Shown here: piece after piece, positions 5,037 through 10,291 of the stretch | Position numbering within the stretch: position 1 is the first letter of the stretch | How the letters are laid out: the number at the start of each line of letters is the position of its first letter | Origin: Deltaproteobacteria bacterium | GTDB lineage: Bacteria > JAUYMQ01 | Assembly (NCBI GenBank): GCA_030698575.1 | Contig: JAUYMQ010000353.1 | Coordinates: 1-10,291, forward strand | Direction: 5' to 3' | DNA length: 10,291 nt | Translations under genes and position numbers: made by a program | Notes under the pieces: generated by a model | Database searches by the model: none | What the model was told of the DNA's origin: nothing | What the model saw: only the letters and a program-made list of their open reading frames with translations

Positions 5037-5112
5037 TGGTGGAGCTGAGGGGGTTCGAACCCCTGACCCTCAGACTGCCAGCCTGATGCTCTCCCAGCTG
5101 AGCTACAGCCCC
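5037..5112 (-). tRNA. tRNA-Ala (anticodon GGC)
   Basis: The minus strand folds into a complete 76-base cloverleaf. The acceptor stem is GGGGCTG with CAGCTCC and includes the G3:U70 wobble pair that is the alanine identity element. The D arm is GCTC-AGCTGGGA-GAGC. The anticodon stem TCAGG/TCTGA holds the loop CTGGCAG with anticodon GGC. The variable loop has 5 bases (GGGTC), and the T arm is AGGGG-TTCGAAC-CCCCT. The discriminator A and the CCA end are encoded (5037-5040). It reads GCC codons, which are abundant in this GC-rich segment. It is transcribed alone from the promoter at 5148-5176. Confidence 0.98.
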
Positions 5113-5407: not shown

Positions 5408-6214
5408 ATGATCCAGCGTTCCATCCGAACCGCTCTCGTTTTCACGCTCCTACTGGCCCCCTCCCAGACAGCGGCCACGACGACCCCCAAGCCGCTTCCG
5501 CGGACTGCAACAGTTGATCTCGCGGTCGCCTTGCCCAGCGGCGAGCAGACGCTCCCTGTCTATCGCTTCAGCCGCCAGCCCCACGAGTACACACAGGCCA
5601 TGATGTATTTCTCAGCCCCCTCCGGTGTGACCGAAGAGGATCACGAGATGGCGCGCCAGGTCGCCGAAAACGGGTGCTGGGCGGTTCTTCTCGATCTCGG
5701 GAAGCTCACTTCGAAGTTCAAGGACGAGGCGGAGTTCGATCAGGCGGTCGTGGCCATCGCCCTTGCGATGAGGAAGAGCATGAGCGACGCCATCGGGCCC
5801 AGGATGAAGGACCAGGGTGAGAGAAAGTGGCCCTATACTTTCGCCGGCCGGGGCGCCGGGGCGGTGCGCGCGTCTCGCGCGGCGATCGGCTTCGAGGCCA
5901 AGGGCAAGGTGCGGGGTGTGATGATGATCGAGCCGGCGGTCGAGGCGCCCGGAATCGGAACCGGGGCGGCGCAGGTCGAGCATTCCCAGCTCCTCCCGAA
6001 GCTCGGGGTGGCGCCGGTGGCTTTCGCCGTCTCCGGCGAGAACGAAACCGTTCACACCCTCGAGAAAGACGTCATCGGCTACAACGCGGTGAAGCCCTCG
6101 GTCAAGGGCGGGCTCGAGTTCATCTCCATGCACTACCCGATCCGCAGGCAGCGGGCGCCCCGCACGGGGCCAGCCGTGTTCGATCCCGGCAAGCTCTTCC
6201 AGCCCGGACGCTGA
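5408..6214 (+). CDS. Secreted protein with a probable alpha/beta-hydrolase-like fold lacking the nucleophile serine
   Basis: I do not recognise this 268-residue protein as a named gene. It begins with a signal peptide (Arg4, Arg7, then ALVFTLLLA, a likely cut near residues 22-23), so it should be exported. After a Pro/Thr-rich linker the order is: a strand region (TVDLAVALPSG, then AMMYFSAP at 64-71), a helix, WAVLLDLG (91-98), a long acidic helical segment, and YTFAGRGAGAVRASRAAIG (143-161). Then follow VRGVMMIEPA (168-177) and VAPVAFAVSGENETVH (201-216). This order resembles dienelactone-hydrolase-like alpha/beta hydrolases, where the elbow should be G-x-S-x-G; here it is G147-R-G-A-G151, with no serine or cysteine nucleophile. 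A binding or regulatory role, or a different fold, is therefore possible. ATG is preceded by AAGGAG at nine bases. It appears monocistronic. Confidence 0.72.
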   Translation: MIQRSIRTALVFTLLLAPSQTAATTTPKPLPRTATVDLAVALPSGEQTLPVYRFSRQPHEYTQAMMYFSAPSGVTEEDHEMARQVAENGCWAVLLDLGKLTSKFKDEAEFDQAVVAIALAMRKSMSDAIGPRMKDQGERKWPYTFAGRGAGAVRASRAAIGFEAKGKVRGVMMIEPAVEAPGIGTGAAQVEHSQLLPKLGVAPVAFAVSGENETVHTLEKDVIGYNAVKPSVKGGLEFISMHYPIRRQRAPRTGPAVFDPGKLFQPGR

Positions 6215-6220
6215 GAGCGC

Positions 6221-6276
6221 GGGGGGATTGCGTCGTCGGGCCTCAATACTTCCTCGGCCCTCCTCGCAATGACATG
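6221..6276. repeat. Short palindromic intergenic repeat (REP/MITE-like)
   Basis: Outer arms ATTGC (6227-6231) and GCAAT (6266-6270) and inner arms GGGCC (6238-6242) and GGCCC (6256-6260) are exact inverted repeats, giving a long imperfect hairpin. On the minus strand its edge reads GTCATTGCGAGGAG and the other end reads GCAATCCCCC. I recall this TCATTGCGAG...GCAATC layout as a dispersed intergenic repeat in many environmental and deltaproteobacterial genomes. It starts seven bases after the stop at 6214 and could also stabilise or end that transcript. Only one copy is in the window. Confidence 0.6.
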
Positions 6277-6306
6277 CGGGGCGAATGTTACGGCCCCTCG
6301 CGCGTC

Positions 6307-6335
6307 TTGATGGGGTGCGGGGCGGGTGGTAGCAT
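6307..6335 (+). promoter_or_regulatory. Probable sigma70-type promoter of the VWA-TonB-repeat operon
   Basis: TTGATG (6307-6312) and TAGCAT (6330-6335) are separated by exactly 17 bases. The -10 box is close to that of the tRNA promoter in this window (TAGCGT). Transcription would start near 6342 and give a leader of about 100 bases before the GTG at 6445. Just upstream, GGGGC (6278-6282) and GCCCC (6293-6297) form a small dyad. Confidence 0.55.
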
Positions 6336-6444
6336 CGTTTTTTCCCGGTTTCACGCGCGCGGGCGTCGGTCCGGATCTCGCCTCCCACCCCCCAGGGCGC
6401 GTACCCGATCCATCCCCGCCCGCATCCTCAAGAGAGCGCCTAGC

Positions 6445-7800
6445 GTGCATCGAAGCGTGTCGAAAGCCCCGAACTCAAACCCGAGACCGCCAGGAAGGGT
6501 CCTGGCGCTCGCCGCCGCGTGCCTGCTCACGCTCACCATGGCCGGTGAGGCCGGGGCGATCTCTTCGGTCAACCTCGACGTGCGCTCGCCGCAGGACGGC
6601 GAGAACCTCACCCATCACCTGAATCTCGCCTACCTGACCGGCGACACCTGGGTCAACGCCCCCTACCGGCGGGCGCAGGACGTCGTGATGCTCATCGATT
6701 CGTCGGGCAGCACGGCCGACCCCTCGGGCGCCGACGTCGACGGCGACGGCAAGACCGGGCGCGGATTCCTGGGCCTCGTGACCAACACTGACGGCGGCGA
6801 CTCCGTGCTGGCCGCCGAGATCGCCTCGGCGCGCAAGCTGCTCCAGAGTTTCGACCCGGGCATCACCGCCGTGGCGGTGGTCACCTTCGACGGCGGGCGG
6901 ACACAGGGGTTCGGCTTCGGCCGCCAGCTCATCCCCGACGCGGTCGTCGAGCAGCCCCTGACGGGGAACTACCATCTGGTCGAGGGCGCCCTCGCGCGAA
7001 TTCTCCAGCGCGGCCCGGACGGCGGCACCAACATGGCCGAGGGCGTGCGCATGGCGGTGAACGAGCTGACCGGCTTTCAGAGCGCCTCCGTTCCACGCCC
7101 CGGCGCCGAGCGCTCGATCTATCTCTTCACAGACGGCTTCCCCACCCTCCCCTTCCTCGGCTGGTTCGCCGCCGAGCGGAAGAACGTCGAGCTGACCGTT
7201 TATTACGCCGAGACCGCCGGCCGGCTCGGCATCAAGGTCCACGCTTTCCCGGTGGGCAAGAGCGCGCTCGCGCGCCCGCTGGCCACCGTCGATGCGGCGC
7301 GCGTGTCGGGCGGAATGTTCGTGCCGGTGCCCGATCCGGGCAAGCTCCCCGCCGTCATCGAGGCCGTCGCGGCGCTGCGCGTGCAGCGCGTCACCGTGCT
7401 CAACACCACCACGCAGGAGCGCGCGCGCGTGGTTAAGCTCAATCCCGACGGCACCTTCGACTCGCTCGTCCCCGTCAGGCCCGGGCCCAACCGGCTGGAG
7501 ATCATCGCCATCGCCACCGACGGCGGCTCGTCGATGCAGAACGTCACCGTGAACTACCAGCGCCCGTCGCAGAAGAGCCTCGACGTGAGCGTCGAGGAGG
7601 CGCGGCAGCTCGAGAAGCTGCTCGAGATCCAGATCGAGGAGGACGAGGGCGGCCTGCCCGACCGCGATCTGTTCCTCGAGATCGAAGTGGAGCGCCGCAA
7701 GGCTTTCGAGCAGGCCGAACGGCAGCGTGAGGAGCTGGGCATGGCGCGGGAACCCGTGACCTCGCCACCGACCGCGCCCGGCCCGGGGGGCGCGCCATGA
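6445..7800 (+). CDS. Secreted von Willebrand factor A domain protein with complete MIDAS and inserted DxDxDG loop
   Basis: The frame is open from much further upstream. I chose GTG at 6445 (451 residues) because it has GAGAG eight bases before it, avoids the gene at 5408 and yields a proper signal peptide (Arg18, then VLALAAACLLTLT, cut near AGA at 36-38). The VWA domain follows: the MIDAS DxSxS is D85-S-S-G-S89, with Thr195 in GGTNMAEG and Asp230 in LFTDG, all intact, so it can bind a divalent metal and a ligand. Directly after DxSxS an insert carries a DxDxDG loop (Asp97, Asp99, Asp101, Gly102), like a calcium-binding loop, before helix 1 resumes at about 119. Residues 312-372 look like a beta-sandwich domain; 380-433 is a charged, coiled-coil-like helix; the tail is Pro-rich. 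No C-terminal anchor is seen, so it is periplasmic or surface-associated. It is the first gene of the operon and overlaps the next by 4 bases. Confidence 0.85.
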   Translation: MHRSVSKAPNSNPRPPGRVLALAAACLLTLTMAGEAGAISSVNLDVRSPQDGENLTHHLNLAYLTGDTWVNAPYRRAQDVVMLIDSSGSTADPSGADVDGDGKTGRGFLGLVTNTDGGDSVLAAEIASARKLLQSFDPGITAVAVVTFDGGRTQGFGFGRQLIPDAVVEQPLTGNYHLVEGALARILQRGPDGGTNMAEGVRMAVNELTGFQSASVPRPGAERSIYLFTDGFPTLPFLGWFAAERKNVELTVYYAETAGRLGIKVHAFPVGKSALARPLATVDAARVSGGMFVPVPDPGKLPAVIEAVAALRVQRVTVLNTTTQERARVVKLNPDGTFDSLVPVRPGPNRLEIIAIATDGGSSMQNVTVNYQRPSQKSLDVSVEEARQLEKLLEIQIEEDEGGLPDRDLFLEIEVERRKAFEQAERQREELGMAREPVTSPPTAPGPGGAP

Positions 7801-8933
7801 GCGACCCACGGCCGAACGGCGCCGGCGAGTCGCGCTGGACATTTCTGCGCGACGCCATCGACGAGCTTCAGCGCAAGCAGTCGCGAATTCCCGCGCGGTG
7901 GTTCCGCCCGATCTCGGAGTGGGCAAGTCGCCAGGAAAGTTCCGGCCTGCTCCGTTTCTGGTCGCCCGCGCCCCGGGTGCGCGAGGCCGGCGATCTCTGG
8001 CTGATCGAGGACCGCAACGTGCGGTTCGACCCCTTCTTCCTGACCTCACTCCTGCTTCATCTGATCCTGGCGCTCCTCCTCTGGCAGGTGCTGAGCGAGT
8101 TGCCCGAGCCTGATCCCGAGAAGGAAAAGGAAGTCATCGTGCGGCTCGAGGAGCTGCTGCCCTCCGAGGCGGGACAGGCTGCGGCCGTCCCCGCGCCCGT
8201 GCCCGAGCCCGCCAAACCCGCGGCGGCCCCCAAGGCCGAGGCCAAGGCGCCCACGCCCAAGGCGACGGCTCCGAAGCCGAAGCCCAGGCCCACGCCGGTG
8301 GTGCAGAAGCCCGTGCCGGAGCCTGAGCCCGAGCCCATTCTCGCGCCCAAATCCATCAGCAAGCCCAAGGCCATCAGCACCAAGGCGCCCATCTCGCCGA
8401 GCACCCCCACGCTCTCGGAGCGCGTCGCCGACGTGCGGGCGCCCTCGGCGGGCGCCGAAGTCACGATGGGCGCGGGTGCGTCGGCCTCCGACATCGACGT
8501 CGATCGCGGCGGCGCCACGGGCGTTCGGGGGCCCGCCGGCCCCGTAGCGGTCCCCGGGGGACAGGGCGCCGGAACAGGGCGCGGCGCGAGCACCGGGCGC
8601 GGGGACGTCCAGGGCTCTCCCATGCGCAGCTTCGAAACCGACCCCGACTTCCAGGAGTATCTGGAGAAGATCAAGAAACGCATTCAGCAGGTGTGGGCCT
8701 ACCCGCCGGGCGTTGCAGGAAAGCAGACCGTAGTGCTGGTCTTCCGCCTCGACGCCAGCGCGCGCGCATACGACGTGAGCGTGCGGCGTTCGTCGAACGT
8801 GGGGCTAAACCAGAGCGCCATGGACGCCATGAAGCGCGGCTCCCCCTTCCCGCCGATCCCAGGCAAGTTCCGCGGGCTCATCGGCATCCCCCTGGCCCTG
8901 ACGGTCACCGTCACCATCACGAGCACCGGATGA
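7797..8933 (+). CDS. TonB-family energy-transducing protein with long cytoplasmic N-terminus
   Basis: The 378 residues show: a 79-residue N-terminal part rich in Arg and Trp; one membrane helix at about 80-99 (FFLTSLLLHLILALLLWQVL); an acidic stretch, then a Pro/Ala/Lys/Glu-rich linker (about 102-206); a Gly-rich low-complexity part (224-275); and a TonB C-terminal domain (about 284-374) with VWAYPP, VVLVFRLDASARAYDVSV and a FPPIPG motif. The helix contains S84-LLL-H88, the SxxxH spacing by which E. coli TonB uses Ser16/His20 with ExbB-ExbD, so coupling to the proton-motive force is plausible. E. coli TonB has a far shorter cytoplasmic tail, so the N-terminal extension is unusual. The gene starts in an ATGA overlap with the VWA gene and ends in another with the repeat protein, which points to translational coupling. 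No exbB/exbD is visible. Which TonB-like partner it serves is unknown. Confidence 0.88.
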   Translation: MSDPRPNGAGESRWTFLRDAIDELQRKQSRIPARWFRPISEWASRQESSGLLRFWSPAPRVREAGDLWLIEDRNVRFDPFFLTSLLLHLILALLLWQVLSELPEPDPEKEKEVIVRLEELLPSEAGQAAAVPAPVPEPAKPAAAPKAEAKAPTPKATAPKPKPRPTPVVQKPVPEPEPEPILAPKSISKPKAISTKAPISPSTPTLSERVADVRAPSAGAEVTMGAGASASDIDVDRGGATGVRGPAGPVAVPGGQGAGTGRGASTGRGDVQGSPMRSFETDPDFQEYLEKIKKRIQQVWAYPPGVAGKQTVVLVFRLDASARAYDVSVRRSSNVGLNQSAMDAMKRGSPFPPIPGKFRGLIGIPLALTVTVTITSTG

Positions 8934-10291
8934 CCGCCCGCGCCCTCAGCCTGCCGGCTGTCTGCCTGGCGTTTGCGCTCTCCGGCGCCGTCGCGCACGC
9001 GCAGGTGTCCGATCCGGCGGCGAAGCTCTACTACGAAAACGATCAGATCGTGCGCCAGGAGCTGGACAACGACGGCGACGGGCGCACGGACGTCTGGATC
9101 TTCTTCACCGCGGGCAAGCCGGCCCGGCAGGAGCAGGATGAGGACTACAACGGCCGCGTGGACATCTGGCACCACTATGAAGAAGGCCGCCTGGTCCGGC
9201 AGGAGGTCGACGAGAACGGCGACGGAAAGCCCGACACGGTCTACGAGCTGGATCCATCGGGCACCCTCTCGAAGAAGCTGTCGCTGAACAGCCAGGGGAA
9301 GAAGCAGCGCGTGGTCGCCTACTCGAACAACGACGCCTCGCGGCAGCAGGAAGACACCGACGGCGACGGCGTGATGGACCGCGTGGTGATCTTCGAGGGC
9401 GGGCGCATTGCGCGTGTGGAGGATCTCGGGCTCACCGAGGGCAAGGCCAACACCTTCTCTCACTATGATCGCGCGGGGCAGCTCGAGCGCGTCGAGGGGG
9501 ACAAGAACAAGGACGGACTCGTGGACATCCGGCGCTTCTTCGTGAGCGGCCGGCTCGACCACGAGGAGATCGATTCAAATTTCGACAGCAAGACCGATCT
9601 GCGCGCCTGGTACCGCGACGAGAAGATGACGCGCCGGGAGCAGGATACCGACTTCGACGGCGGCTTCGAGACGAAGTCCTGGTACGAGGGGGACGCCCTC
9701 ACGCGGAAGGAGCTCGACAAGGACGGCGACGGCCGCGCCGAAACGGTCGTGGAGTTTTCCGGCGGCAAGCCGGTGCGCGAGGTGCGCCTGACGGATGCCG
9801 GGCAGGAGACGTTGACCTTCGAGGCCGGGCAGGCGGCGCGCCGCGAGTTCGACTCGAACAGCGACGGCCGGGTCGACGTCGTCGAGGAGATGTCCGGCGC
9901 CCGCATCACGCGAAAGCTGGAAGACACCGATCACGACGGCCGCTTCGACACGATCACCGAGTGGCCCGACGCGACGCGCGTGGTGCAGGAGACCGATTCC
10001 GACGCCGACGGCAAGCTCGACCTGCGATCGACCTTCATGGGCGGGACCCTCTCGCGCCAGGACGCCGACACCAACAAAGACGGTCAGGCCGACGTGTGGA
10101 TCAGCTTCCTCGACGGCCAGAAGCACCAGCAGGAGGAAGACACCGACTTCGACGGGCGCATCGACGCGCGTTTCACCTACGCCGGCGAGGAGATCACGAA
10201 GCAGGAGCGGGTCAACCGCGAACGCCCCGCCGCCGATCGCGCGCGCCCCTTCTCGCCGGTCCCGGCGACCAGCCGGGTGACCGGCGCGGCG
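8930..10291 (+). CDS. Exported protein of sixteen 24-residue DxDxDG repeats, 3' end outside window
   Basis: The frame opens with ATG in a 4-base ATGA overlap with the TonB-like gene and stays open for 454 codons to the window edge. A signal peptide is clear (Arg4, hydrophobic core LSLPAVCLAFALSGAVA, cut after AHA at residue 24). Residues 45-426 are sixteen units of 24 residues (one of 25, one of 21) with the pattern D-x-[DN]-x-D-G-x-x-D followed by two short strands, a Gly turn and often RQE. Such acidic loops resemble the calcium-binding loops of EF-hands and thrombospondin type-3 repeats; the strand part resembles MORN/YD-type repeats. I know no named protein of this exact type. After the repeats comes an Arg/Pro-rich stretch, perhaps a linker to another domain. 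A calcium-stabilised periplasmic or surface rod is inferred. Confidence 0.83.
   Translation, partial: MTARALSLPAVCLAFALSGAVAHAQVSDPAAKLYYENDQIVRQELDNDGDGRTDVWIFFTAGKPARQEQDEDYNGRVDIWHHYEEGRLVRQEVDENGDGKPDTVYELDPSGTLSKKLSLNSQGKKQRVVAYSNNDASRQQEDTDGDGVMDRVVIFEGGRIARVEDLGLTEGKANTFSHYDRAGQLERVEGDKNKDGLVDIRRFFVSGRLDHEEIDSNFDSKTDLRAWYRDEKMTRREQDTDFDGGFETKSWYEGDALTRKELDKDGDGRAETVVEFSGGKPVREVRLTDAGQETLTFEAGQAARREFDSNSDGRVDVVEEMSGARITRKLEDTDHDGRFDTITEWPDATRVVQETDSDADGKLDLRSTFMGGTLSRQDADTNKDGQADVWISFLDGQKHQQEEDTDFDGRIDARFTYAGEEITKQERVNRERPAADRARPFSPVPATSRVTGAA
9062..10207 (+). repeat. Array of sixteen 72-bp coding repeats (24-residue DxDxDG units)
   Basis: Aspartate loops begin at residues 46, 70, 94, 142, 191, 215, 239, 263, 308, 332, 356, 380 and 404. 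Units 4, 6 and 11 keep the length frame but have lost the acidic loop, and unit 8 has Ser for Gly. Unit 6 has one extra residue and unit 11 three fewer. At DNA level the units differ strongly, so the array is old rather than a recent expansion. Confidence 0.88.

What the first reader, a model, noticed from the sequence alone, without database searches (positions are those of the whole stretch)
6307..10291. Three-gene operon: MIDAS-VWA protein, TonB-like coupler and DxDxDG-repeat protein
Seen: one promoter candidate, three genes in one direction, both junctions being 4-base ATGA overlaps, all three products exported or membrane-inserted, and DxDxDG loops in both the first and third products. 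Known: MIDAS VWA domains bind ligands through a metal; TonB proteins transmit proton-motive force across the periplasm. Inferred: a metal/calcium-dependent envelope machine, perhaps adhesion, gliding-like motility or surface assembly, in which the TonB-like protein pulls on or energises a complex of the other two. The nearest idea I can offer is Myxococcus gliding, where TonB-like proteins work with the VWA adhesin CglB, but no sequence link is claimed. I know of no described system with this trio.
Basis: partly seen in the sequence, partly recalled or inferred. Interest (0 to 1): 0.72.

Follow-up and report, generated by a model that had tools for sequence, protein, structure and literature searches.

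The report
Proton-driven machine with calcium-ribbon proteins
The three neighbouring genes are half of a six-gene, apparently undescribed bacterial envelope machine, found in several phyla, in which a proton-driven TonB-type motor is linked to long ribbon-like proteins with repeated calcium-type loops and to an adhesion-type (VWA) protein.

Summary
In detail: exported VWA protein (6445-7800), TonB-like protein (7797-8933) and DxDxDG-repeat protein ("DDG", 8930 to contig end), joined by 4-base ATGA overlaps. No sigma-70-like promoter was found. The window is a whole contig. Contig C199 of the same genome starts in frame with the probable end of the DDG gene, then encodes a DDG lipoprotein, ExbB and ExbD, so the trio is probably half of a six-gene operon. 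Contig C79 carries a second DDG-lipoprotein/VWA pair. Relatives support one system. All 30 other VWA-carrying genomes searched have DDG genes (against 35 of 386 diverse genomes), and in 23 of 23 intact long-DDG loci tonB lies immediately upstream, with exbB nearby in 19. Three loci hold all six genes together; a Methylomirabilota contig holds five before it ends. The DDG protein is predicted as a single-layer beta-ribbon resembling OspA. Most likely this is a Ton/Tol-type force transducer whose TonB pulls on DDG ribbons anchored at the outer membrane, with the VWA protein as ligand binder. It is not simply nutrient uptake: one 96%-complete carrier has no TonB-dependent receptor detected. Gliding remains possible but unproven. 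The function is unknown.

The parts
6445..7800 (+). vwa gene: exported VWA protein (451 aa): signal peptide, N-terminal beta strands, VWA domain, Ig-like domain (aa 313-371), two C-terminal helices (aa 383-430)
   Evidence: Pfam VWA_2 3e-7; AF2 model pLDDT 84.5 with VWA fold; nearest solved folds are pilus adhesins PitA/SpaC, inter-alpha-inhibitor HC1 and ANTXR2; homologues in 71 public loci
6697..6711 (+). MIDAS DxSxS (D85-S-S87-G-S89)
   Evidence: D85 and S87 invariant and S89 over 90% in 29 homologues; partner residues T195 (7027-7029) and D230 (7132-7134) over 90% conserved
6733..6750 (+). DVDGDG loop inserted after the MIDAS, a family signature
   Evidence: D97 invariant and G102 over 90% conserved in A5; also present in P0008 of contig C79
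7797..8933 (+). tonB-like gene: N-terminal cytoplasmic segment of about 80 aa, TM helix, Pro-rich linker, TonB C-terminal domain
   Evidence: TonB_2 6.7e-9 over aa 286-358, cut-off exceeded; TIGR01352 1.1e-6
8046..8060 (+). motor-binding motif S84-LLL-H88 in the TM helix (S-x3-H of TonB/TolA; L95 also fits SHLS)
   Evidence: present in this protein and in many TonB-like proteins of relatives; in some relatives a variant of the motif is seen
8652..8930 (+). TonB C-terminal domain
   Evidence: 40% identity to the Methylomirabilota L035 homologue
8930..10291 (+). ddg gene: exported DxDxDG-repeat protein, open at the contig end; probably ends about 18 codons into contig C199 of the same genome
   Evidence: NCBIfam Lsa25.6 domain-level similarity 5.9e-19, below its cut-off
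9023..10210 (+). repeat region: about 34 beta strands in strand-turn-strand-Ca-type-loop units of about 24 aa; predicted single-layer beta-ribbon
   Evidence: AF2 mean pLDDT 89, about 95 over most of the repeat region; engineered OspA single-layer sheet Z 13.9 over 307 residues
7797..7800 (+). ATGA overlap vwa/tonB
   Evidence: sequence
8930..8933 (+). ATGA overlap tonB/ddg
   Evidence: sequence

Best explanation
The trio is part of a conserved six-gene, proton-motive-force-driven trans-envelope machine: ExbB and ExbD (inner-membrane motor), a TonB-like force transducer, an exported DDG ribbon protein, an outer-membrane DDG lipoprotein, and an exported MIDAS-VWA protein. Shown by sequence and comparison: the parts, their domains, their linkage and co-occurrence. 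Inferred mechanism: the ExbB-ExbD proton channel drives the TonB-like protein through its S-x3-H transmembrane helix. The TonB C-terminal domain grips an edge strand of a DDG beta-ribbon by strand addition, as TonB and TolA do with their targets. The Ca-loop-stiffened ribbon passes the pull to the outer-membrane lipoprotein and the VWA protein, whose MIDAS binds a ligand (surface, or the Asp-rich DDG loops). The most likely use is mechanical work at the outer membrane (tethering, constriction, or assembly or traction of an adhesive surface complex) rather than uptake through a TonB-dependent receptor. Which of these uses is not resolved.
For: Own genome: C199 begins in frame with a Pro/Ala-rich gene end, then an ATGA overlap into a DDG lipoprotein, then ExbB (Pfam 2.8e-32) and ExbD (3.3e-28); suffix/prefix share GCGGCG and codon usage correlates at r=0.95; C79 carries a second DDG-lipoprotein/VWA pair. 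Canonical TolQRA are elsewhere on C267. Relatives: L035 TonB>DDG>DDG-lipoprotein>VWA>ExbB; L077, L093 and L192 all six genes in one place. Long DDG directly downstream of tonB in 23 of 23 intact loci, with exbB in 19 of 23, against 0 of 46 control loci around the other VWA clade (Fisher p 2e-13, kinship not corrected). 30 of 30 searched VWA carriers have DDG genes, against 35 of 386 diverse genomes. Five of five other strong VWA carriers in the unbiased survey have DDG (p 4e-6; four of four families, p 5e-5). The window VWA groups with the DDG-linked clade (99/96 support). G214 (96% complete) has the system but no Plug domain detected. DDG is predicted as an edge-exposed single-layer beta-ribbon.
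Against: No experiment exists for any homologue found. In two genomes without the VWA family the DDG gene sits in a TonB-dependent receptor operon (L153, L156), so DDG may be an uptake accessory there. Most loci of the wider VWA family are not beside exbBD. The C326-C199 join rests on a 6-base overlap plus reading frame and content. The window VWA is on a long branch. Calcium binding, secretion and TonB-DDG contact are predictions.
Confidence: 0.62

Rival explanations
1. Dedicated nutrient or metal uptake: the system is an ordinary Ton system whose TonB energises a TonB-dependent receptor encoded elsewhere; DDG is a periplasmic calcium- or metal-binding accessory and VWA an auxiliary.
For: DDG lies in receptor operons in L153 (receptor>ExbB>ExbD>TonB>DDG) and L156 (receptor>CobN-like>DDG>ExbB>ExbD>TonB>DUF2162>MotA/ExbB>DUF2149). 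29 of 32 genomes searched have at least one Plug domain, and the window genome has one on C590.
Against: No receptor was seen in the VWA-containing clusters. G214 (96% complete) has no Plug domain detected, nor do the less complete or unrated G388 and G411, yet they carry the system. The window genome's single receptor has its own tonB on the same contig. The exported VWA protein and up to 1,150-aa DDG ribbons have no known role in receptor systems.
Confidence: 0.2
2. Adhesion/gliding machine comparable in principle to the Myxococcus Agl-Glt complex: the motor moves VWA adhesins along or across the envelope (a special case of the best explanation, counted apart).
For: The ingredients match in kind: ExbB/ExbD-type motor, TonB-like transducer, outer-membrane lipoprotein, VWA protein. 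Most carriers are Myxococcota. In about ten loci a GldA/GldF/GldG-like ABC operon is adjacent (below the equivalog cut-offs).
Against: The VWA protein has a plain signal peptide and no lipobox (CglB is an outer-membrane lipoprotein, PMC4488436). No GltA/B-type barrels or AglZ were identified in the clusters. The GldAFG-like neighbours may be shared synteny of one class. Nitrospinota and Methylomirabilota carriers are not known gliders (own knowledge).
Confidence: 0.25
3. Chance or house-keeping neighbourhood: three envelope genes that are not a functional unit.
For: None found beyond the window itself.
Against: The linkage recurs across phyla and in different orders and orientations, and the genes co-occur even when unlinked.
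Confidence: 0.03

Closest known systems
ExbB-ExbD-TonB (Ton) system
   Same: ExbB and ExbD families, TonB-type transducer with S-x3-H TM helix, Pro-rich linker and TonB C-terminal domain
   Different: No TonB-dependent receptor in the VWA-containing clusters; two or more DDG proteins and a VWA protein instead; one 96%-complete carrier has no receptor detected
Tol-Pal
   Same: Motor, transducer, exported periplasmic protein and outer-membrane lipoprotein in one cluster
   Different: No Pal (OmpA-like) or TolB beta-propeller in the cluster; the window genome has separate TolQRA genes on C267
vWA force transducers next to tolQR (Williams-Jones et al. 2025, PMC12204202)
   Same: vWA proteins genetically tied to TolQ/ExbB-type motors, and a TPR gene in the Nitrospinota locus L085 as in the PVC clusters
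   Different: There the vWA is the C-terminal domain of a TM-tethered transducer; here the VWA is a separate signal-peptide protein beside a true TonB C-terminal-domain protein, plus DDG proteins, which that paper does not mention in the passages read
Myxococcus xanthus Agl-Glt gliding complex with CglB
   Same: ExbB/ExbD-type motor, outer-membrane lipoprotein and VWA protein
   Different: No sequence link beyond the VWA fold tested; no lipobox on the VWA; OM barrels and cytoplasmic parts not found in the clusters
Lsa25.6 family (Leptospira; NCBIfam NF050087)
   Same: DDG repeats match stretches of this model (5.9e-19 for P0003; 1.4e-28 for P0012)
   Different: Below the curated cut-off (68 and 100 bits against 150); much longer; tied to a motor
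Borrelia OspA single-layer beta-sheet
   Same: Predicted DDG fold is a free-standing single-layer beta-meander; engineered OspA is the best solved match (Z 13.9, 307 residues, rmsd 11.9)
   Different: About 10% identity; DDG hairpins carry Ca-type loops; fold similarity only

Membership tests
ExbB-ExbD-TonB (Ton) system | MotA/TolQ/ExbB and ExbD/TolR proteins encoded with the transducer | tested here: met
   On C199 (Pfam 2.8e-32 and 3.3e-28), probably the continuation of the window; directly linked in relatives
ExbB-ExbD-TonB (Ton) system | TonB architecture: TM helix with S-x3-H, Pro-rich linker, TonB C-terminal domain | tested here: met
ExbB-ExbD-TonB (Ton) system | Energises TonB-dependent outer-membrane receptors | tested here: inconclusive
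   No receptor in the VWA clusters; G214 (96% complete) has no Plug domain detected, the window genome has one elsewhere, L153 and L156 have one in the operon
Tol-Pal system | TolB beta-propeller and Pal lipoprotein in the cluster | tested here: not met
   Pfam of cluster proteins shows neither; the genome's TolQRA lie on C267
vWA force transducers (PMC12204202) | vWA domain tethered by its own TM helix (SHLS or trans-pore) to the motor | tested here: not met
   P0001 has a cleavable-type signal peptide and no S-x3-H helix; the tether is the separate P0002. The signal peptide call is by inspection.
Myxococcus Agl-Glt/CglB gliding complex | VWA protein is an outer-membrane lipoprotein | tested here: not met
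   No lipobox Cys in P0001 (alignment); CglB lipoprotein status from PMC4488436
Myxococcus Agl-Glt/CglB gliding complex | GltA-K, AglZ and MglA partners | not tested
   No family models for these were searched
Lsa25.6 family adhesin | Score above the NCBIfam cut-off | tested here: not met
   68.4 and 99.8 bits against 150
MIDAS-type VWA proteins | DxSxS, Thr and Asp of the MIDAS | tested here: met
   Conserved in 29 homologues, VWA fold in the model; metal binding not testable

The most novel reading that the evidence does not exclude
A new class of proton-driven envelope machine in which TonB pulls not on a receptor plug but on calcium-stiffened single-layer beta-ribbons (up to about 1,150 aa and 35 Ca-type loops) that span the periplasm as ropes to an outer-membrane lipoprotein and a VWA ligand-binding protein, found in Myxococcota, Nitrospinota, Methylomirabilota and the window's own isolated lineage.
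Probability: 0.35. Interest if true: 0.85.

Novelty: new variant of a known kind. Interest (0 to 1): 0.68.

Why it matters
Only a few uses of ExbB/ExbD-type motors are understood (receptor import, outer-membrane constriction, gliding, type 9 secretion). A conserved cluster that ties such a motor to a long calcium-loop beta-ribbon and a MIDAS-VWA protein would add a further output, with a plausible mechanical element (a stiff beta-ribbon that TonB could grip by strand addition). It also gives a function-guiding context to a large family of DxDxDG-repeat proteins for which Pfam has no family and NCBIfam only a sub-threshold Lsa25.6 match, and makes clear, testable predictions (TonB-DDG binding, calcium dependence, independence from receptors).

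Tried and rejected
Single-sequence scan of genome contigs with P0001 found nothing; the alignment-based scan succeeded. Pfam gives no family for DDG proteins at its cut-offs, and P0003 has no sequence match in the PDB. Foldseek's top hits for DDG (Rhs/teneurin) have TM-scores of 0.2 or less and were read as shared local beta-hairpin strips only. Promoter scan negative. Literature searches for a described VWA + ExbB/TonB + calcium-repeat system found only the 2025 vWA transducer paper. A GldAFG-like ABC operon beside the Myxococcota loci was considered as evidence for gliding but may be class-level synteny. Ordinary gene-order conservation was considered and rejected because the genes stay together in different orders and orientations, and co-occur when unlinked.

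Full report
What is there. The window is one complete 10,291-base contig (C326) of a 4.13-Mb, 653-contig assembly, the only genome of its phylum held. The three genes are real: VWA protein P0001 (GTG 6445 to 7800), TonB-like P0002 (7797-8933) and DDG protein P0003 (8930, open at the contig end), with ATGA overlaps at both junctions. P0001 has a signal peptide, a VWA domain with full MIDAS and a D-x-D-x-D-G insert just after it. P0002 has a TonB C-terminal domain, Pro-rich linker and an S-x3-H transmembrane helix. P0003 has twelve DxDxDGxx[DE] loops on a register of about 24 residues, against 0.02 expected in shuffles. No sigma-70-like promoter was found upstream; the stretch holds a dispersed repeat.

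The rest of the operon. The same genome has DDG matches on only two other contigs. C199 starts in frame with a Pro/Ala/Ser-rich gene end (AAPSPSGAPKTGASGRGA-stop), overlaps by ATGA with a DDG lipoprotein, and continues with ExbB and ExbD. Window end and C199 start share only GCGGCG, but frame, content and codon usage (r=0.95) agree. I treat the join as likely, not proven. C79 ends with a second DDG lipoprotein joined to a second VWA gene. The genome's only other ExbB-family gene is TolQ, with TolR and TolA, on C267. The genome's one TonB-dependent receptor lies on C590 with its own tonB.

Relatives. In 386 diverse genomes, full-length VWA relatives occur in five genomes other than the window's (six if a weak match is counted), and DDG matches in 35. 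All five strong VWA carriers are among the 35 (hypergeometric p 4e-6, or 5e-5 by family). Their DDG genes lie next to tonB and/or exbB-exbD. The VWA alignment found 71 public loci, mostly Myxococcota/Deltaproteobacteria, with Nitrospinota and one Methylomirabilota. L035 reads TonB>DDG>DDG-lipoprotein>VWA>ExbB to the contig end; L077, L093 and L192 hold all six genes; L085 reads TPR>ExbB>ExbD>TonB>VWA; ten more have VWA convergent with a DDG gene.

Linkage numbers. All 30 searched VWA-carrying genomes have DDG genes. In 23 of 23 loci where the long DDG and its upstream side could be read, tonB is directly upstream, and exbB is in the same stretch in 19. None of 46 loci around the second VWA clade has exbB at E below 1e-6. 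Fisher p is 2e-13, without correction for shared ancestry, so the size of p should not be taken literally. The window VWA groups with the DDG-linked clade, though on a long branch.

Structure. AlphaFold2 gives P0003 as about 34 consecutive strands with pLDDT around 95 over most of the repeat region. The best solved match is engineered OspA (Z 13.9, 307 residues), so the predicted shape is a single-layer ribbon with free edge strands. Rhs/teneurin hits have very low TM-scores and mean only similar hairpin strips. The VWA model shows a VWA domain flanked by beta-sandwich strands, nearest to pilus adhesins and ANTXR2.

How it most likely works. Shown: parts, motifs, linkage. Inferred: ExbB-ExbD proton flow drives the TonB-like protein; its C-terminal domain binds a DDG edge by strand addition, the binding mode described for TonB and TolA (PMC12204202); the ribbon carries force to the outer-membrane DDG lipoprotein and VWA protein. 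A pure receptor-uptake role is disfavoured because G214, 96% complete, carries the system with no Plug domain detected. It is not excluded, because DDG sits in receptor operons in L153 and L156. Gliding or adhesion is possible; the VWA protein lacks the lipobox that CglB has.

Novelty. The nearest published idea is the TM-tethered vWA force transducers of PMC12204202. The present system differs in having a true TonB C-terminal-domain transducer, separate exported VWA, and DDG ribbon proteins. I found no description of this set in the library searched. I rate it a new variant of the Ton/Tol kind.

Limits. TonB and ExbB calls in relatives rest on phmmer matches, and gene starts were not curated. 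Calcium binding and all contacts are predictions.

Noticed in passing
window 6206-6300: A dispersed repeat with 58 matches in the genome lies between the upstream gene and the VWA gene.
   Followed up: partly
L195-L198, L200, L205-L207, L209, L210: A GldA/GldF/GldG-like ABC-transporter operon (below equivalog cut-offs) lies beside exbB-exbD of the DDG locus in about ten Myxococcota genomes, with aroA further upstream.
   Followed up: partly
L156 227-11156: TonB-dependent receptor, CobN-like protein, DDG, ExbB, ExbD, TonB, DUF2162, MotA/ExbB and DUF2149 in one run: resembles haem/corrinoid uptake operons with a DDG gene inserted.
   Followed up: partly
L153 10656-16242: Receptor>ExbB>ExbD>TonB-like>DDG in an unnamed 3.6-Mb genome; a second, similar DDG copy lies at 5867-6826.
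   Followed up: partly
L085 728-3808: 1026-aa TPR protein upstream of ExbB>ExbD>TonB>VWA in a Nitrospinota genome, with an N-terminal PEVVIIGED segment that looks like a TonB box.
   Followed up: no
L141 2471-3373 and 9737-10492; L144 4073-4903: Glycine-zipper outer-membrane-type lipoproteins flank the DDG/TonB/ExbBD loci of Nitrospinota-type genomes.
   Followed up: partly
L145 3224-5332: 702-aa lipoprotein with FG-GAP repeats next to ExbB-ExbD of the genome G214 in which no receptor was detected.
   Followed up: no
window 5037-5112: tRNA-Ala (GGC) on the minus strand.
   Followed up: no
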